Shown here: one piece after another, positions 37,698-45,448 of the stretch
Position numbering within the stretch: the first letter of the stretch is position 1
How the letters are laid out: every line of letters starts with the position of its first letter
IMG/VR virus record: IMGVR_UViG_3300032296_000825
Coordinates: 1 to 45,448 of that record
DNA from: a virus
Length of the DNA stretch: 45,448 bases
Reading direction: 5' to 3' (one strand)
Translations under genes and position numbers: made by a program
Notes under the pieces: model-generated
What the model was told of the DNA's origin: nothing
Database searches by the model: none
The model's input: only the letters and a program-made list of their open reading frames with translations

Positions 37698-39623
37698 ATG
37701 ACAAATTTACCAACACTTTATCAGGATTTTATTCACCTCTCTCGTTACTCAAGATGGTTGCCCGAGAAGAACCGAAGAGAGACATGGAAGGAAACGGTTT
37801 CCCGTTACTTCGACTTCTTTGAGAAGCATCTTAAGGAAAAGCACAACTATACTGTGACAAAGAAGGAACGAGAAGAACTTGAAAATGCAGTTCTTAATCT
37901 TGATGTCATGCCCAGTATGAGAGCGTTGATGACCGCAGGGCCCGCGTTGGAGCGAGACAATGTTGCAGGATATAACTGCTCCTATGTCGCGGTCAATCGC
38001 CTTCGCTCATTCGATGAGATTCTTTACATTCTTATGTGTGGTACTGGCGTTGGTTTCAGCGTTGAGCGTAATGAAGTAGATCAACTACCCATCATCGCAG
38101 AGGACTTCCACCCATCTGATACAACGATCATCGTTGCAGATTCGAAGATCGGTTGGGCAAAGGCATATAAGGAACTCGTCTCACTTCTTGCAACAGGACA
38201 GGTTCCCAAGTGGGATATCAGCAAGGTTCGCAAGGCAGGAGAAAGACTAAAGACATTCGGTGGTCGTGCCTCTGGCCCAGAACCTCTTGTTGAACTATTT
38301 GAATTTACAACTGCCACTTTCAAGAAGGCAGCGGGTCGTAGACTTTCCTCTCTAGAGTGTCACGATATCGTTTGTAAGATCGCAGAGATCGTTGTGGTTG
38401 GTGGAGTTCGTCGCTCCGCACTCATTTCACTATCATCACTTACCGATGATCGTATGCGTGATGCGAAGTCGGGCGCATGGTGGAATGACAATCCACAACG
38501 CGCACTAGCAAACAACTCCGCAGTCTATAACAGTCCAATTGAGATCGGAACATTCATGGAAGAGTGGTTGGCACTCTACAAGTCGAAGAGCGGAGAGCGT
38601 GGTATCTTCAACCGCATGGCAGCAAAGAAGACTGTTGCTGCTCTAGGTGATCGCCGCGATCCCAACCACAATTTCGGAACTAACCCATGCAGCGAGATCA
38701 TTCTTCGTGATCGTGAGTTCTGCAATCTTTCCGAGGTTGTTGTTCGTGCGGATGACACGGAAGAGTCTCTTGCCCGAAAGGTTCGCATCGCTGTGACCCT
38801 TGGAACATGGCAATCCACTCTCACCAACTTCCGCTATCTCTCTAGCGATTGGGTAAAGAACTGCGAGGAAGAGCGTCTTCTTGGTGTGTCCCTCACGGGT
38901 ATCATGGATTGCACTCTTACCAACGGATTGAAGGATGGTCTTCCTTCACTTCTACTCCGTCTCAAGAATCACGCAGTCGAGTACAACAAAGAGACTGCAA
39001 AGAAAATTGGAATCAATCCATCTGCTGCAATCACCTGTGTCAAACCATCAGGTACGGTGTCACAGTTAGTCGATGCTGCATCGGGCATCCACCCAAGACA
39101 CAGCAATTATTACATCCGTACTGTTCGCGCAGATAACAAAGACCCTATCTGCAACTTTATGAAAGACAAGGGATTCTACCACGAACCATGTGTGATGAAA
39201 CCACATAATGTAACGGTTTTCTCTTTCCCCATGAAGTCTCCCGATGGATGTGTGACAAGAACTGACATATCTGCAATTGAACATCTTGAACTTTGGTTGA
39301 CATATCAAAAGTACTGGTGTGAGCATAAACCATCCATCACCATCTCTGTAAAGGAGAATGAATGGATGGAAGTCGGTTCGTGGGTTTGGAAGAACCTAGA
39401 CAAGATTTCAGGTATCTCTTTCCTTCCGTTCTCGGATCATGTGTATAAGCAAGCACCATACCAAGACACGGATGAAGAAACTTACCTTAAGGAATTGGAG
39501 AAATTGCCAACAGAAGTTGATTGGGATGAACTCTCCAAGTATGAGCGTGAGGACAACACATCGGGTTCACAAACATATGCCTGTAGTGGTGATAGTTGTG
39601 AAATCGTAGACCTCACCAAGTGA
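37698..39623 (+). CDS. nrdJ: Ribonucleotide reductase, class II (adenosylcobalamin-dependent, monomeric type)
   Basis: A 641-residue RNR catalytic protein resembling the monomeric L. leichmannii RTPR type: CSYVAVNRLRSFDEIL (early redox Cys), LMCGTGVGFSVERN, VVGGVRRSALISLS, GTNPCSEIILRDREFCNLSEV (active-site Cys; read in two parts), CVKPSGTVSQL and a C-terminal YACSGDSCEI redox pair. Class II needs coenzyme B12 from the host and no oxygen or NrdB partner; no small-subunit gene is seen. It supplies deoxynucleotides for replication. Confidence 0.9.
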   Translation: MTNLPTLYQDFIHLSRYSRWLPEKNRRETWKETVSRYFDFFEKHLKEKHNYTVTKKEREELENAVLNLDVMPSMRALMTAGPALERDNVAGYNCSYVAVNRLRSFDEILYILMCGTGVGFSVERNEVDQLPIIAEDFHPSDTTIIVADSKIGWAKAYKELVSLLATGQVPKWDISKVRKAGERLKTFGGRASGPEPLVELFEFTTATFKKAAGRRLSSLECHDIVCKIAEIVVVGGVRRSALISLSSLTDDRMRDAKSGAWWNDNPQRALANNSAVYNSPIEIGTFMEEWLALYKSKSGERGIFNRMAAKKTVAALGDRRDPNHNFGTNPCSEIILRDREFCNLSEVVVRADDTEESLARKVRIAVTLGTWQSTLTNFRYLSSDWVKNCEEERLLGVSLTGIMDCTLTNGLKDGLPSLLLRLKNHAVEYNKETAKKIGINPSAAITCVKPSGTVSQLVDAASGIHPRHSNYYIRTVRADNKDPICNFMKDKGFYHEPCVMKPHNVTVFSFPMKSPDGCVTRTDISAIEHLELWLTYQKYWCEHKPSITISVKENEWMEVGSWVWKNLDKISGISFLPFSDHVYKQAPYQDTDEETYLKELEKLPTEVDWDELSKYEREDNTSGSQTYACSGDSCEIVDLTK

Positions 39624-39977: not shown

Positions 39978-40550
39978 ATGGCAATAGCAGGAATCGACTA
40001 TTCACTTTGCGGACCTTGTATCTGTATCTTCGAAGGAACCCCGAAGGATTTATTCGGATTGAACAAGTGTTCTTTCTACTTCCTCACAGATACCAAGAAA
40101 TTAGCAACAGTCTATGACGGTTATATCTTTGGGGAGTTGTTCGACAACTACAACCACGAATGTCAAAGGTATGAAACCATATCAGATTGGGCGGTAGATC
40201 ATGTTCTTGGTTGTACTGATATCGCAGTAGAAGGTTATGCGTATGGCGCATCAGGAAGAGCGATCTTTCAAATAGCAGAAAACTGCGGACTGTTGAAGTA
40301 CAAACTATATCAAGCAGGAAAACCTGTAGAAATAGTCACACCATCTGCTGTGAAGAAGTGGGGTTCAGGAAAAGGAAATGCATCGAAGGAAATGATGGTG
40401 GATGCATTTGAAAATCAGACGGGAGTTGATCTGATGCGTTTGGTTACACCTGACAAGAAGTCTGTTGGCAATCCTGTGTCTGATATCGCAGACTCATACT
40501 TCATTTGCTCTTATCTTCATCAGATTCTTCGTGACCGCGATCAGACTTGA
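39978..40550 (+). CDS. RuvC-like Holliday-junction nuclease
   Basis: A 190-residue RNase-H-fold nuclease of the phage RuvC-like type. Acidic residues lie in the expected order: GIDYSLCGP (D7), AVEGYAYGASG (Glu, about 80) and a C-terminal SDIADSYFIC (Asp pair, about 169-172). It would resolve branched DNA before packaging, as endonuclease VII does in T4. The start is only 14 bases after the terminator and has no clear ribosome site. The 3' end overlaps the opposing gene by 50 bp. Confidence 0.8.
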   Translation: MAIAGIDYSLCGPCICIFEGTPKDLFGLNKCSFYFLTDTKKLATVYDGYIFGELFDNYNHECQRYETISDWAVDHVLGCTDIAVEGYAYGASGRAIFQIAENCGLLKYKLYQAGKPVEIVTPSAVKKWGSGKGNASKEMMVDAFENQTGVDLMRLVTPDKKSVGNPVSDIADSYFICSYLHQILRDRDQT

Positions 40551-40773
40551 ATTCAAACCACGCCCACATCGAAACGACGAGAACCATGAAACCCCAAGCA
40601 ATTGTTCCCCATATTTTATGATATGGTTCTACTTCATAAGTAAAATTCTGATGAATTGCGTTAGGGTCAATTGGTTTTGAACCTTTTTCATGTTCAAGAA
40701 ATACTTGACCCGTAGAACAACTTGCAAGAAACATGAGCATTGAAATCAATAAGATGATTATGAATTTCTTCAT
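40501..40773 (-). CDS. Small lipoprotein with C-terminal TM helix (u-spanin-like candidate)
   Basis: A 90-residue protein with a signal peptide and lipobox: MKKFIIILLISMLMFLASC (Cys19). A short periplasmic part (20-51) follows, then a hydrophobic helix (about 53-72, IWGTIAWGFMVLVVSMWAWF) and a charged cytosolic tail. N-terminal lipid plus C-terminal TM is the layout of unimolecular spanins (phage T1 gp11), which fuse inner and outer membranes in lysis, although the periplasmic part is short. It overlaps the upstream holin-like gene by 4 bp. Could also be another membrane lipoprotein. Confidence 0.7.
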   Translation of the reverse strand: MKKFIIILLISMLMFLASCSTGQVFLEHEKGSKPIDPNAIHQNFTYEVEPYHKIWGTIAWGFMVLVVSMWAWFEFKSDRGHEESDEDKSK

Positions 40774-41222
40774 CTTGTTCTTCCTACTGCTGATCCGAAG
40801 TAAAAACCAACGATAGTCACTAGAATCTGACGGTTCTCTTGTGTAAAGAGATAACCCTTGATTGTCTCGTATGTAATCACATCATTTGTACCGAACAATC
40901 CAAAGATATCAAGTGGCGCATTTCGTTTCTCTACAACTTCAACAACAGTAGGAATACCAAAGAATGGTAGAATAAACGGAGCAAGGATGGTTCCAAAGAG
41001 AACACATAGAACAATGAATCTTCTGACCCACTTTCCTGCATCTACTCCAACTCTTTGAACTGCCTTGTCGTGGGATTCATCTGTCTTTGCTATTGCGTCA
41101 ATCATTCGATTGAAACGCTCTTGTTCGTTCAGTCTCTTCTCTGCGAGAGACTTAAATATGAATCCTGCGAAACTTCCTCCGACTAGCGAAAGGAACTCGG
41201 TTGTTAGAAGACCTTCTAGCAT
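40770..41222 (-). CDS. 3-TM holin-like membrane protein
   Basis: A 150-residue protein with three hydrophobic segments: about 7-26 (TTEFLSLVGGSFAGFIFKSL), about 68-92 (RFIVLCVLFGTILAPFILPF, then FGIP) and about 132-147 (ILVTIVGFYFGSAVG). The layout and the final GFYFGSAVGRTR resemble the 3-TM holin family known from gene-transfer agents. Adjacent to the u-spanin-like gene it suggests a lysis pair. No endolysin gene is in the window. Confidence 0.6.
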   Translation of the reverse strand: MLEGLLTTEFLSLVGGSFAGFIFKSLAEKRLNEQERFNRMIDAIAKTDESHDKAVQRVGVDAGKWVRRFIVLCVLFGTILAPFILPFFGIPTVVEVVEKRNAPLDIFGLFGTNDVITYETIKGYLFTQENRQILVTIVGFYFGSAVGRTR

Positions 41223-41223
41223 A

Positions 41224-41658
41224 CTACCCCCTATTATGTCTTAGACGACCATCCGTCTGCCTTCTTCGAAGAAAGACCATCTCACCCGTCTCTTCATTTT
41301 TCACAACTACAGGTCTGCTAGGATTACGAAGGGAATAGTTTTTGATTTGAACACCTAGATCGGAGTCCTCATCAATATATCTGTTCCAACGCTCTCCTCT
41401 GATCTTTCCGTCCTTTAGTTTCTTGAATTCCTCGGACGGAACCATGAAGACCTTTCCCTCGTACTTCTTGAGTTCTCTATGACCTCTTCTGAAAATCTTT
41501 CTCTTGAGAGGTTTCTCATATCCGCTGATCCCGCTGAATGATCCTGCGGGTTGAGCGGCAAGACCCCCCGATACATTGGTAATCTCTTCTGAGAAATATC
41601 TCTCAAACTCATTGCGATGATTCGCTAGTGTCTGCATGAAGTCTTGAAATTTCTTCAT
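41224..41658 (-). CDS. Unknown basic protein (late block)
   Basis: A 144-residue, Arg/Lys-rich protein. The first ~35 residues are helical (KKFQDFMQTLANHRNEF), then a Gly/Ser linker and a basic part containing FMVPSEEFKKLKDGKIRGERW and VVVKNEETGEMVFLRRR. Two adjacent ATGs exist; 41658 lies 6 nt from AAGGAG (41670-41665) and is preferred to 41661. No family recognised; a virion or DNA-associated role is possible from charge and position. Confidence 0.65.
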   Translation of the reverse strand: MKKFQDFMQTLANHRNEFERYFSEEITNVSGGLAAQPAGSFSGISGYEKPLKRKIFRRGHRELKKYEGKVFMVPSEEFKKLKDGKIRGERWNRYIDEDSDLGVQIKNYSLRNPSRPVVVKNEETGEMVFLRRRQTDGRLRHNRG

Positions 41659-42059
41659 CATATTCTCCTTAGTATCCCTATTACCTTTGTATCCATCGGT
41701 ATTCTAGTATATTCGTCGTTCTTTGGTAGATAGTTCAGATATACCAAGAATGTCTTGAGAAGGGGTTTAAACCTGTCTTCCATTTTATAGAACAACATCT
41801 TCGTCGCAGCGTCTATATCGAAGACATTGTAGAAGATTATGATATGATTCAGAATCAGTCTTTCCTTCAACTCACCTGATGTCTGATATCTACCGAACAG
41901 TCTCTTGATGTATTTGATCCTGTTCAAATCTTCTTCGAACTCTCCATGATCTAGACACGATGGATTCTTGTAGTTGTCCATCGCAAACTGGAAGAAAACC
42001 TCATCATTGAAATCTGAGTCGGTTTCAAAATACACGATGTTTCTTAATGCTGTTGCCAT
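41658..42059 (-). CDS. Unknown conserved-type protein of marine T4-like phages
   Basis: A 133-residue helical protein (ALRNIVYFETDSDFNDEVFF, RIKYIKRLFGRYQTSGELKE, LILNHIIIFYNVFDIDAATK). I remember similar proteins from cyanophage structural blocks, where function is unknown. It overlaps the upstream gene by 16 bp and the downstream start, so it is part of one translational chain. Confidence 0.7.
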   Translation of the reverse strand: MATALRNIVYFETDSDFNDEVFFQFAMDNYKNPSCLDHGEFEEDLNRIKYIKRLFGRYQTSGELKERLILNHIIIFYNVFDIDAATKMLFYKMEDRFKPLLKTFLVYLNYLPKNDEYTRIPMDTKVIGILRRI

Positions 42060-42361
42060 CTCTTCGCGGCATTCATCTGATAGACTCTTCTGCCAATCTC
42101 ATCTTCAAAAGACTTCTGAAGAGAGGTTGTTTCGGGGTTTCCCTTCGTTGCAGCATCGAAATGTTTCGATACAATCTTATTGATGTCTTGTGACAGGTGT
42201 GGTTGAGAAGATAGGTCTGCTATCTCTTTTGCAGCAGCATCCATGTGTGTTCCAAATTCATCAGGAACTACTGGTTGACCACCGATGATCTCGGTGGCCG
42301 CTGCGATTACATTCTTCAGACTGTCTGCTGTGTTATTAAATGGGTTTGGTACTTGTGACAT
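42044..42361 (-). CDS. Small unknown protein downstream of the fusion gene
   Basis: A 105-residue, mildly helical protein (SLKNVIAAATEIIGGQPVVP, LSQDINKIVSKHFDAATKG). ATG 42361 is preceded by AAGGAG with a 5-nt spacing, and it starts 11 bases after the three-domain fusion gene ends. No family recognised. Confidence 0.65.
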   Translation of the reverse strand: MSQVPNPFNNTADSLKNVIAAATEIIGGQPVVPDEFGTHMDAAAKEIADLSSQPHLSQDINKIVSKHFDAATKGNPETTSLQKSFEDEIGRRVYQMNAAKRWQQH

Positions 42362-42372
42362 TTGTTCTCCTT

Positions 42373-44541
42373 TCAAATACCGAAAAAATCATTCGCGATT
42401 TCATTCATTTCACCGGGGGTCATTCTCTTGTAACGACGAACAATCTCGTCAGTACCTTCCTCGGGAGGGTTAGTAAAGTCTACTTTCTTTGCTCTCTTCT
42501 TGTATCTATCTAAAAATTCTTGAGTTCCTTCAATGGTTGGATCAACTGCCTCGTCTAAAGAAGATGTCTTTATGAACTTCCTTGCAGGATCAACAAGTAT
42601 TCTATGATCCGTCATAAAAGGAACACCGACAAGAACTGGTGTTGACTTGTTGCTTCTATTGTCTAGACTAAACAACTTCCTGAATTTCTTGTTCAAGAAT
42701 GTCATAACGAGTTCAATCATGGGTCTTTCTTCTGCGGGTTGACCTGCTCCTTGTTTGATCTTCACCGTTCCCATCAACTTATTTCTAAATCTCTTACCGT
42801 TGAAGTGCCAAACAACCATATCACCTTTTATTGTAAAAGAATCCGCATGAAGACAAGTGACAGTACCGTTGCCTGTGTCGAACTTCGCAGTAACATCACC
42901 AACTCCTTCGATATTGACAACCTCATGTGTTCCAACCACAGTTGGTGGATGAACCCAGTTGCTCTTCTTAATGATGCTCTTGACAAACTTTCCGATGATG
43001 TTCTTTCCCGTTGCCTTTTCGACACCTTCTGATCCGGGCGAAGAATTGACCTCTAGAACATATGGTTTTCCCGTCTTCTTGGATATGGCGATATCTACAC
43101 CCGCGTAGTAGCATCCAACTGCCTTCGCTGATTTCACAGCGATCTGTTCGATATTCTTATCAATTGATACCTTGGCAACCGAACCACCAAGAGAGTAGTT
43201 TGTTCTGAACTCTTTCTTCGTGCTAGAAGTTCTCTTCATTGCAGCGATTACCTTGCCATTCAACACAATAACTCTGAAGTCATAGTTGATGGGAATGAAC
43301 TCTTGGATGATTAGTTCTTGATCCTTGTCGATCTTTTCAATTGCCTCGACCGAAGATTTCAAAGACTTCTCACTCTCCACGATGAAGACACCTTTGCCCT
43401 TCGAACCTCGGATCGTCTTGACCACAACAGGAAACTTACCACCGACCTTCTTGTGAATCTCCATTACCTTTTCGGGTTTGGTGATGAGGGCAGTCTTTGG
43501 TGTGGGGATGTTATCATCCAACAATGAAAGATATGTTCGATACTTGTCCGAACAAGTCTCTATTGAATCTCTTGGATTGACCACGAAGAAACCTTCTTTT
43601 TCAAAGGAGGTTATGATATTCAGAGTTCCCGATGTCCAGTTAGAACCACGAACAACAATCACCGTGTTCTTGATATCAGCAATAAACTCCTTACCATCTC
43701 TGTTTATGATTGTGATGGTTCCATCTTTATTCTTGATGGTATTGCATTCAGGAAAGAATGCAACAAAGCACTCGACATCCATGCGGTCGCATTCTTCCTT
43801 TATTCTTCTTGCTGTTATCATGTAATTGTCAGGGTTCTTGGAGTTGAACCCCGAGAACACAACAACCTTGACATCACTTTTCTTGACTACCTCTTGAGGT
43901 TCAACTTCTTCTTTGATGCCCATGTTTGCCCTTAGTGTTTTGAAGAGTCTATTAGCGTCTTCTTTTCCGAGACGAGAGGGAACACCCTTTACAAAGGTGT
44001 CGTAATCGTTGTTTTCCGCTGCTGCCCGCATCTTGGATGCGCTCATGCCTGTCACATCTGTTGCATCAGGGTCGCGCTCACCTGCGCTAACGACATCAAA
44101 ATTACTAGGGTCAATACCAAGGGACTTCTTAGGGTCTTTGTGATCCAAATATGGAGTGATTGTTTTCTTAAACTCCGCAACCCTATCTCCACCAACGACT
44201 AATGTTATCTTACTATAACCCTTCTCGCGAAGATGATAAAGTGCATCAAATACAGTATCAACATTTGGGTCGTCTACTATATCAATCTTTGGAAACGACT
44301 TCCGTAGAAAATAAATCTTGTCTTTAGATGACAGAGGATTCTTCTTCTTGTCTTGTGTTCTACTAGGGAACACAAAAGCGTCTGCCCCCAATTTCTTAGA
44401 GACAGACAAGACCGCCCCAACCAGTTTTTCGTGACCGATTGTGGGTGGTTGAAATCTACCGAATGTAAAGACAGCGGATTTCTCCCTCTGACTTCTCAGT
44501 AGAACTTTCTCTTCATATTTCATCTGAGAAAGATTTTTCAT
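42373..44541 (-). CDS. Three-domain fusion: nucleotidylyltransferase + RimK-like ATP-grasp ligase + RimB-like aspartyl protease
   Basis: A 722-residue protein. Domain 1 (about 20-210): (T/H)xGH nucleotidylyltransferase with FGRFQPPTIGHEKL (22-40) and GMSASKMR (165-172), a type seen as a stand-alone protein in cyanophages. Domain 2 (about 222-530): RimK-like ATP-grasp; PVVVKTIRGSKGKGVFIVES (371-390), QEFIP (413-417), YAGVDIAIS (479-487) and LEVNSSPG (496-503) carry the ATP/Mg and ligase residues. Domain 3 (about 535-657): RimB/DUF785-like retropepsin fold with AKFDTGNGT (552-560), LHADS, AEERPMIEL and LVGVPFM (637-643). The tail has two EGTxExxxRYKK repeats and TPGE. The substrate is unknown; amino-acid ligation to a protein plus a linked cleavage is the family-based idea. 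Confidence 0.85.
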   Translation of the reverse strand: MKNLSQMKYEEKVLLRSQREKSAVFTFGRFQPPTIGHEKLVGAVLSVSKKLGADAFVFPSRTQDKKKNPLSSKDKIYFLRKSFPKIDIVDDPNVDTVFDALYHLREKGYSKITLVVGGDRVAEFKKTITPYLDHKDPKKSLGIDPSNFDVVSAGERDPDATDVTGMSASKMRAAAENNDYDTFVKGVPSRLGKEDANRLFKTLRANMGIKEEVEPQEVVKKSDVKVVVFSGFNSKNPDNYMITARRIKEECDRMDVECFVAFFPECNTIKNKDGTITIINRDGKEFIADIKNTVIVVRGSNWTSGTLNIITSFEKEGFFVVNPRDSIETCSDKYRTYLSLLDDNIPTPKTALITKPEKVMEIHKKVGGKFPVVVKTIRGSKGKGVFIVESEKSLKSSVEAIEKIDKDQELIIQEFIPINYDFRVIVLNGKVIAAMKRTSSTKKEFRTNYSLGGSVAKVSIDKNIEQIAVKSAKAVGCYYAGVDIAISKKTGKPYVLEVNSSPGSEGVEKATGKNIIGKFVKSIIKKSNWVHPPTVVGTHEVVNIEGVGDVTAKFDTGNGTVTCLHADSFTIKGDMVVWHFNGKRFRNKLMGTVKIKQGAGQPAEERPMIELVMTFLNKKFRKLFSLDNRSNKSTPVLVGVPFMTDHRILVDPARKFIKTSSLDEAVDPTIEGTQEFLDRYKKRAKKVDFTNPPEEGTDEIVRRYKRMTPGEMNEIANDFFGI

Positions 44542-44905: not shown

Positions 44906-44913
44906 TATTTATC
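44906..44913 (-). promoter_or_regulatory. Candidate late promoter GATAAATA, minus strand
   Basis: On the minus strand the octamer GATAAATA is centred about 24 bases before the ATG at 44886. It overlaps the stop of the upstream gene. It is the same variant of the T4 late -10 as at 20670 and 24861 on the plus strand. Confidence 0.5.
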
Positions 44914-45448
44914 CTTTATCCCAGTTCTTCGCTGCATTGAAGTTTGCTCGGGAGAAGGTGAGTCTATCAACTAGTTTGAACGCTCCCTTTCCTATACGAT
45001 CAATTGCTACGAATCCTTCGGGTGCTGTTACTTCGAATCCGTTGTCCTTCTTCAAGAATAGACCAATAGATTTCACCTGTTCGATCTTTCTTACAATAAA
45101 CAACTTGACTTCTGATAGTTTAGCATGGATAGCAAAGAGGGCCACAATCGCTTGGGCGTTTGATTTGATATAGTTCACCGCGTCTTCTTTTGCTTTGGTC
45201 TTTGATGAAACAGATGCTTGTGTCTTTGCTTTTGAAATCTCGGCATCATATCTCTGCTCCACGAAGTTTAAGAACCCCTTGTAGATAGAATGAGGATCAC
45301 CGATGTTTCCTGTTCTAACAAGAGAGTTATAGAAAGTCTTTAGTTCGATTTCTATGCTACTCTTGGTCAACATGGTGTCAATGATCTTTAGGTACGCTGT
45401 CTTTGATGCCATTCTTGTAAGATCGCCTAGCAACTTCTTTGCAGTTTC
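44909..45448 (-). CDS. 5'-truncated gene, C-terminal part of a conserved marine T4-like phage protein
   Basis: The frame is open to the window edge (it continues upstream of 45448 as ...ETAKKLLGDL), so only the C-terminal ~179 residues are present. A TTG at 45433 is not a convincing start. It has a helical region with a long charged/hydrophobic segment (SIYKGFLNFVEQRYDAEISK, AIVALFAIHAKLSEVKLFIV) and a characteristic end PEGFVAIDRIGKGAFKLVDR followed by LTFSRANFNAAKNWDKG. I recall this end from large cyanophage head-region proteins of unknown function. Confidence 0.7.
   Translation of the reverse strand, partial: ETAKKLLGDLTRMASKTAYLKIIDTMLTKSSIEIELKTFYNSLVRTGNIGDPHSIYKGFLNFVEQRYDAEISKAKTQASVSSKTKAKEDAVNYIKSNAQAIVALFAIHAKLSEVKLFIVRKIEQVKSIGLFLKKDNGFEVTAPEGFVAIDRIGKGAFKLVDRLTFSRANFNAAKNWDKG

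What the first reader, a model, noticed from the sequence alone, without database searches (positions are those of the whole stretch)
42373..44541. Three-enzyme fusion: nucleotidylyltransferase, RimK-like ligase and RimB-like protease in one phage polypeptide
The sequence shows three intact-looking catalytic domains in one 722-residue frame: TIGH and SASKMR motifs (domain 1), full ATP-grasp motif set with K375, E414, D482, E497 and N499 (domain 2), and an FDTG retropepsin motif with a C-terminal VGVPF (domain 3). In bacteria RimK adds glutamates to ribosomal protein S6 and RimB-type proteins are linked to it in regulation. Marine T4-like phages usually carry domain 1 alone. A single protein that could activate, ligate and trim an amino-acid tag would be a new post-translational modification device, on host ribosomes or on phage head proteins.
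Basis: partly seen in the sequence, partly recalled or inferred. Interest (0 to 1): 0.87.

Follow-up and report, generated by a model that had tools for sequence, protein, structure and literature searches.

The report
Virion-packaged RimK–RimB enzyme fusion
A marine T4-like phage encodes a glutamate-adding enzyme, a matching tail-cutting protease and a nucleotide-transfer enzyme in one chain, and signals shared by its relatives suggest such enzymes are packed inside the virus head and injected into the host, probably to edit a host protein such as one on the ribosome.

Summary
Window 42373-44541 (minus strand) encodes 722 residues: a HIGH-type nucleotidylyltransferase (NTase, 20-212), a RimK ATP-grasp ligase (225-528), a RimB/PF05618 retropepsin-like domain (533-660) and a tail. 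Active-site motifs are intact. The fusion is real: it occurs in a second contig (99.8% over 11 kb) and in at least six other distinct viral proteins (684-1162 aa).

I do not support the reading "one enzyme that activates, ligates and trims". NTase and RimK-RimB each occur alone, linkers vary from about 13 to 400 residues, and RimK needs no separate activator.

New finding: 46 of 48 distinct stand-alone phage RimK-RimB N-termini carry a T4 capsid-targeting sequence (F..[FY][IL].E|A; T4 internal proteins MKTYQEFIAE|A), against 0.9 expected from shuffling. Stand-alone NTases and the neighbouring DUF6267 gene often carry it too. Complete relatives encode the gp21-type prohead protease. Published virion proteomics found the YerA41 RimK-RimB protein and cyanophage NTases in particles.

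Best reading: a head-packaged, injected enzyme polyprotein whose RimK-RimB pair writes and erases poly-glutamate on a host (possibly ribosomal) protein. Caveat: the window protein's own N-terminal tag is degenerate, and its substrate is unknown.

The parts
42373..44541 (-). Whole CDS, 722 aa: NTase - RimK ATP-grasp - RimB retropepsin-like - tail
44485..44541 (-). N-terminal extension, residues 1-19 (MKNLSQMKYEEKVLLRSQR); degenerate version of the capsid-targeting sequence seen in relatives (L4, M7, E10 at the T4 spacing; no strict motif)
   Evidence: T4 spacing and PMC9026906
43906..44484 (-). HIGH-superfamily nucleotidylyltransferase domain, residues 20-212
   Evidence: PHROG 3041 2.4e-51; PF01467 18.9 bits, cut-off 21; core motifs T26-R29, PPT, GH, S167/S169/K170/R172 kept in 30/30
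44431..44460 (-). GRFQPPTIGH motif, residues 28-37
44026..44043 (-). SASKMR motif, residues 167-172
43909..43917 (-). IKE, residues 209-211 (IKE|E), a prohead-protease-like [LI]-x-E site at linker 1; model disordered at 213-218
42958..43869 (-). RimK-type ATP-grasp ligase, residues 225-528 (K375, E414, D483, E497, N499)
42562..42945 (-). RimB/PF05618 retropepsin-like domain, residues 533-660
   Evidence: 42.6 bits, cut-off 27; weak match to Pseudomonas retropepsin-like 9g58
42871..42879 (-). Catalytic DTG, residues 555-557
   Evidence: D555 32/32, T556 30/32 (S in 2), G557 32/32
42547..42558 (-). LDEA, residues 662-665 (LDE|A), prohead-protease-like site after RimB; an L-x-E at this place in 7/7 triple fusions
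   Evidence: low-confidence segment 656-677 in the model
42376..42546 (-). C-terminal tail (GTDEIVRRYKRMTPGEMNEIA), shared with cyanophage NTase proteins that lack RimK-RimB
44909..45448 (-). Upstream neighbour, 3' part of a DUF6267 gene; the complete copy in L002 starts MIRFGNYIIEE (capsid-targeting-like) and carries KWDGAP and EGFV...KLVDR

Best explanation
The protein is capsid cargo: a polyprotein of three separable enzymes made late in infection, drawn into the T4-type prohead with the scaffold, probably cut at [LI]-x-E sites by the gp21-type prohead protease, kept in the head with the DNA and injected at the next infection. Inside the new host, the RimK-RimB part works as a write/erase pair. 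RimK adds alpha-linked glutamates to a protein C-terminus, ribosomal protein S6 being the best guess. RimB cuts poly-glutamate and stimulates or resets RimK, so host translation can be retuned before phage genes are expressed. The NTase is a second cargo (NMN or other nucleotidylyl transfer) sharing the same ticket, not a step of the same reaction. Shown here: domain architecture, intact motifs, recurrence, capsid-targeting motif in the stand-alone families, gp21 protease in complete relatives. Shown by others: YerA41 RimK-RimB protein and cyanophage NTases in virions; RimK/RimB chemistry in Pseudomonas. Inferred: packaging and cleavage of this particular protein, and its target.
For: Capsid-targeting motif [FY]..[FYLMI][LIMVC].E near the N-terminus of 46/48 distinct stand-alone phage RimK-RimB proteins. 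Shuffled N-termini give mean 0.9, maximum 5 in 1000; internal windows of the same proteins 1/713; the next residue is Ala in 31/46. T4 IPII/IPIII read from T4 itself: MKTYQEFIAE|A. The motif is also strict in 27/64 NTase N-termini (shuffled 0.9) and in most DUF6267 neighbours. Stand-alone S-RIM12 RimK and a Vibrio bacterial RimK start directly at the fold, without it. PF03420 gp21 protease is present in Mosig, YerA41, Melnitz, S-RIM12, S-H25 and the 86-kb contig of triple fusion L109. Triple fusion L113 starts MKKFRDILAE|A; L129 has LLEE|A before RimK and FSQFILEA at its C-terminus. An L-x-E lies just after RimB in 7/7 triple fusions; of six such sites in the window protein the two outside folded domains are at the two linkers. 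YerA41 RimK-RimB is listed as phage-particle-associated (PMC7354516; record annotation). Cyanophage NTases were found in virions (PMC9602691, PMC10665884). RimB cuts poly-Glu tails and stimulates RimK (PMC11957791, PMC7343187).
Against: The window protein's own N-terminus lacks the strict motif (only L4/M7/E10 keep the spacing); of seven triple fusions only L113 has it strictly at the N-terminus. The window contig holds no gp21 gene (it is a fragment). [LI]-x-E is a short motif, the site after RimB partly coincides with the natural RimB C-terminus (...SLD/E), and the seven proteins are related, so they are not seven independent cases. YerA41's RimK-RimB has no strict motif, so its presence in particles could be carry-over. 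The S6-ligase equivalog score is not reached (115 against 331 bits), and the bacterial RimBK hybrid tested did not glutamylate S6.
Confidence: 0.5

Rival explanations
1. A single three-step enzyme, as first read: NTase activates, RimK ligates, RimB trims one amino-acid tag.
For: All three active sites are intact in one chain; the order NTase-RimK-RimB is kept in seven distinct proteins.
Against: ATP-grasp enzymes activate the carboxylate themselves. NTase and RimK-RimB mostly occur apart. The linker between them ranges from about 13 to 400 residues with unrelated inserts. The NTase tail continues after RimB and matches NTase-only proteins, as if RimK-RimB had been inserted in the middle.
Confidence: 0.08
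2. The RimK-RimB pair acts inside the prohead on phage head or scaffold proteins (a poly-Glu tag for assembly or charge balance), not on the host.
For: The targeting motif would place it in the prohead; the cargo genes lie together.
Against: It would need ATP and glutamate in the prohead; no phage substrate is known; the RimK substrates known from bacteria are not phage proteins.
Confidence: 0.17
3. Ordinary intracellular enzyme, made during infection to tune the ribosome or a metabolite; particle detection is contamination and the N-terminal motif has another role.
For: Some cyanophages carry RimK with no targeting motif, next to metabolic genes. In Mosig and Melnitz the gene lies by regA and replication genes, not head genes. 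YerA41 g112 is a middle gene.
Against: 46/48 stand-alone RimK-RimB N-termini carry the motif, while S-RIM12 and bacterial RimK lack it.
Confidence: 0.2
4. The ligase modifies a small molecule or a DNA base (as LysX/MptN/CofF relatives, or phage hypermodified bases) rather than a protein tail.
For: The RimK family includes coenzyme and LysW ligases; MptN and LysX profiles score higher than the S6-ligase equivalog. YerA41 has a bulky thymidine modification.
Against: The RimB partner is specific to poly-alpha-Glu peptides in bacteria; the YerA41 modification is described as apparently oligosaccharide.
Confidence: 0.05

Closest known systems
Bacterial RimABK system and RimBK hybrid (Pseudomonas; Desulfotalea DP2392, PMC11957791)
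   Same: RimK-type ligase joined to a RimB retropepsin-like domain with conserved DTG; predicted poly-Glu writer and eraser
   Different: In the bacterial hybrid RimB precedes RimK; here RimK precedes RimB. The phage forms add an N-terminal capsid-targeting sequence and, in this group, an NTase.
T4 internal proteins IPI-IPIII and Alt (capsid-targeting sequence, gp21 processing; PMC9026906)
   Same: Same N-terminal motif spacing in the stand-alone relatives, gp21-type protease present, probable injection; Alt is a head-packaged T4 enzyme also cut at its C-terminus
   Different: Different enzymes; the window protein has a degenerate N-terminus; several enzymes in one chain
Cyanophage virion NTase / NMNAT-like proteins (S-SCSM1, S-CREM2, S-CBWM1)
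   Same: Same kind of nucleotidylyltransferase domain (homology to those particular proteins not aligned here); found in virions by mass spectrometry
   Different: No RimK-RimB attached; those papers propose NAD synthesis; the targeting motif did not come up in the passages read here
RimK-RimB proteins of Pelagibacter phage Mosig and Yersinia phage YerA41
   Same: Same RimK-then-RimB pair, 34-38% identical to the window's part; YerA41 protein reported in particles
   Different: No NTase; annotated only as glutathione synthetase or structural protein

Membership tests
RimK family (TIGR00768 / PF08443) | Family profile above curated cut-off | tested here: met
   TIGR00768 199.6 against 143.4; PF08443 149.9 against 21
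RimK family (TIGR00768 / PF08443) | ATP-grasp catalytic residues | tested here: met
   K375, R423, D483, E497, N499 in 32/32; E414 invariant in alignment A1
S6--L-glutamate ligase equivalog (NF007764) | Score above equivalog cut-off | tested here: not met
   115.2 against 331 bits: RimK-like, not shown to be the S6 enzyme
S6--L-glutamate ligase equivalog (NF007764) | Glutamylates ribosomal protein S6 | not testable with these tools
   needs an enzyme assay
RimB retropepsin-like protease (PF05618) | Profile above cut-off and D[TS]G active site | tested here: met
   42.6 against 27 bits; D555 32/32
RimB retropepsin-like protease (PF05618) | Cuts poly-alpha-glutamate, works as a dimer | not testable with these tools
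   biochemistry needed
Bacterial RimBK hybrid | RimB domain N-terminal to RimK | tested here: not met
   Order is RimK then RimB in all phage forms; bacterial order from PMC11957791
HIGH-superfamily nucleotidylyltransferase (PF01467) | Profile above cut-off and GxxxPPxxGH / S-x-S-x-x-R motifs | tested here: inconclusive
   18.9 bits against 21 in the window protein; L109 and L113 pass; motifs complete in 30/30
T4-type capsid-targeted internal protein | N-terminal targeting sequence, window protein itself | tested here: not met
   MKNLSQMKYEE lacks the strict motif; only the spacing of L4, M7, E10 is kept
T4-type capsid-targeted internal protein | N-terminal targeting sequence, stand-alone RimK-RimB relatives | tested here: met
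   46/48 against 0.9 expected
T4-type capsid-targeted internal protein | gp21-type prohead protease in the genome | tested here: inconclusive
   Absent from the 45-kb window fragment; present in the triple-fusion contig of L109 and in five isolates
T4-type capsid-targeted internal protein | Found in virions, cleaved | not testable with these tools
   Published for YerA41 and cyanophage homologues as presence only

The most novel reading that the evidence does not exclude
Abundant marine T4-like phages carry a pre-made poly-glutamate write/erase machine in their heads and inject it to reprogramme host ribosomes (S6 tails) before any phage gene is read; in one group it is delivered as a polyprotein together with a nucleotidylyltransferase and split by the prohead protease.
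Probability: 0.27. Interest if true: 0.9.

Novelty: new variant of a known kind. Interest (0 to 1): 0.72.

Why it matters
If right, a class of phage genes annotated as glutathione synthetase, S6 modification enzyme or hypothetical protein in very common marine phages, including a phage of SAR11 (Mosig), is a set of injected effectors acting on a host protein, perhaps the ribosome, as T4 Alt acts on RNA polymerase. It gives a simple sequence tag (F..[FY][IL].E|A at the N-terminus) that could be used to list candidate injected proteins across T4-like phages, and it makes the question of why phages carry RimK testable.

Tried and rejected
Assembly chimaera: rejected (L002 and six other distinct homologues). 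One-enzyme pathway: disfavoured (see rivals). NTase against PDB with a 4-sequence profile: nothing meaningful. RimB against PDB by sequence: only a weak, co-linear hit to 9g58, E 0.021. A bacterial RimK-then-RimB fusion was sought: the Vibrio hit is a separate 301-aa RimK followed by matching RimB sequence, not one frame, and the genome-contig scan returned only archaeal RimK-like loci. DUF6267 as a polynucleotide ligase: KWDGAP and EG[FY]V...K are invariant, but Foldseek gave no significant hit, so left open. Whether the NTase fusion arose once or twice: unresolved (two clades). YerA41 DNA hypermodification by the ligase: no support.

Full report
1. What is there. Window 42373-44541, minus strand, is one uninterrupted 722-codon gene. 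Domain searches give a nucleotidylyltransferase (PHROG 3041, 2.4e-51; Pfam PF01467 just below its cut-off here and above it in two homologues), a RimK ATP-grasp ligase (PF08443 8.4e-44; TIGR00768 above cut-off) and a RimB-type 'Zn_protease' (PF05618 7.4e-11, above cut-off). Across 32 homologues K375, R423, D483, E497, N499 and D555 are invariant; across 30 the NTase core residues (TFGR, PPT, GH, S-x-S-K-x-R) are kept. AlphaFold gives three confident domains (mean pLDDT 87, pTM 0.60) joined by disordered linkers at 213-218 and about 656-695; Foldseek's best PDB matches are Pseudomonas RimK (7.9e-24), and E. coli RimK bound to S6 is also among the top hits.

2. It is not an artefact. An independent contig (L002) has the same protein, with 20 mismatches over 11,073 bases of shared DNA. 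A scan of viral contigs found the same NTase-RimK-RimB order in L009/L010 (1047 aa), L011 (915), L012 (1162), L109 (750), L113 (684) and L129 (718). They form two clades in a RimK-RimB tree; one origin of the fusion is not excluded. The same scan showed that RimK-RimB without the NTase is common in marine phage contigs (about 75 of the 80 loci kept), and it is in Pelagibacter phage Mosig and Yersinia phage YerA41. NTase without RimK-RimB is commoner still.

3. Capsid targeting. Reading the N-termini of the stand-alone RimK-RimB proteins showed one shared sequence, e.g. MKAPKFREFISE|A, MQVQPFKNYLEE|A, MKPIKFNDYLTE|A. T4 packs its internal proteins by an N-terminal capsid-targeting sequence removed by gp21; read here from T4 itself it is MKTYQEFIAE|A, with residues 4 and 7 needed for targeting and 8 and 10 for cutting (PMC9026906). 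The pattern [FY]..[FYLMI][LIMVC].E occurs in the first 45 residues of 46 of 48 distinct proteins; shuffling gives a mean of 0.9 and a maximum of 5 in 1000 trials; internal windows give 1 in 713; the residue after E is Ala in 31 of 46. In the Mosig genome only 2 of 179 ORFs match within 18 residues of a candidate start, one being RimK-RimB. NTase proteins match strictly in 27 of 64 (shuffled 0.9), with many near-matches, and the adjacent DUF6267 gene and several other genes beside the NTase carry it as well: a cargo island. A stand-alone cyanophage RimK (S-RIM12) and a Vibrio RimK begin directly with the fold and lack it. A gp21-type protease (PF03420) is found in all five complete relatives tested and in the 86-kb contig that carries triple fusion L109.

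4. Published particle data fit. The YerA41 RimK-RimB gene is marked as phage-particle-associated by LC-MS/MS ('ribosomal protein modification protein', g112; identified with YerA41_066 here by gene order after the ribonucleotide reductase) (PMC7354516). NMNAT-like or cytidylyltransferase proteins were found in virions of several cyanophages (PMC9602691, PMC10665884).

5. The fusion as cargo polyprotein. In the window protein six [LI]-x-E sites exist; four lie inside folded domains and two at the linkers, IKE|E (209-211) and LDE|A (662-664). An L-x-E follows RimB in all seven triple fusions (LDE|A, LSE|A, LTE|A, LEE|A, LEE|R, LFE|S, LGE|S). L113 starts with a full targeting sequence, and L129 has LLEE|A before RimK and FSQFILEA at its C-terminus. 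The tail GTDEIVRRYKRMTPGE matches the tail of NTase-only cyanophage proteins, so RimK-RimB looks inserted between the NTase and its tail. Weak points: the window protein itself has only a degenerate N-terminal tag; cleavage sites are short motifs in related proteins; the site after RimB overlaps the natural RimB end.

6. What it probably does. In Pseudomonas RimK adds glutamates to the S6 C-terminus; RimB is an aspartic protease with a DTG site that removes poly-Glu tails (six or more contiguous Glu, or five when the first is the encoded terminal Glu) and stimulates RimK; a RimBK hybrid with the opposite domain order exists in bacteria (PMC11957791, PMC7343187). By homology the phage pair should write and erase poly-Glu. 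Packed in the head it would act at once after injection. S6 as target is inference: the S6-ligase equivalog score is not reached and the bacterial hybrid did not glutamylate S6. The NTase needs no place in this reaction.

7. Confidence by step (my estimates): architecture 0.99; stand-alone RimK-RimB packaged in heads 0.8; window protein packaged 0.65; cut into parts 0.5; poly-Glu chemistry 0.65; host target 0.55; S6 0.35.

8. Novelty. RimK, RimB, their hybrid, T4 capsid targeting and virion NTases are known. I found no report of phage RimK-RimB as a capsid cargo or of this triple fusion in the open-access papers searched; subscription papers and preprints were not searched. I call it a new variant of a known kind.

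Noticed in passing
44909-45448 (complete in L002:134-1357): DUF6267, the gene upstream of the NTase in over 50 contigs, has KWDGAP and EG[FY]V...K, like motifs I, IV and V of covalent polynucleotide ligases (invariant or nearly so in 38 aligned sequences). The AlphaFold model (pLDDT 83) had no significant PDB match; T4 RNA ligase 2 and DNA ligases were among the weak hits.
   Followed up: partly
L020:118-639, L163:930-1535, and others among loci L109-L188: Other genes with the capsid-targeting N-terminus: several lie beside the NTase (e.g. L163, a HAD related to RNA-repair domains), and one lies near a RimK-RimB gene (L020, an NT5C-type nucleotidase). They look like a set of possible injected enzymes.
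   Followed up: partly
L009, L011, L012 (between NTase and RimK): Long inserts built of shared short cassettes (e.g. DPDTHSDLYTDEDPKGTIHGLGFKD...) with internal targeting-like pieces MFREFMEA, FSNFLES; no Pfam family in the inserts of L009 and L012.
   Followed up: no
41224-41661 (-): 145-aa protein with FERYFSEE near its start, a near-match to the targeting motif; no family.
   Followed up: no
40501-42376 (-): Conserved downstream block (110 aa, DUF7207, 145, 150 and 90 aa); ORFs of similar sizes, with DUF7207 in the same place, also follow the fusion in L109. The 90-aa protein looks like a lipoprotein.
   Followed up: partly
37698-39623 (+): Ribonucleotide reductase with class II (B12-dependent) insertion domain.
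   Followed up: no
L109, L129: Two triple fusions have DSG in place of DTG in the RimB active site.
   Followed up: no
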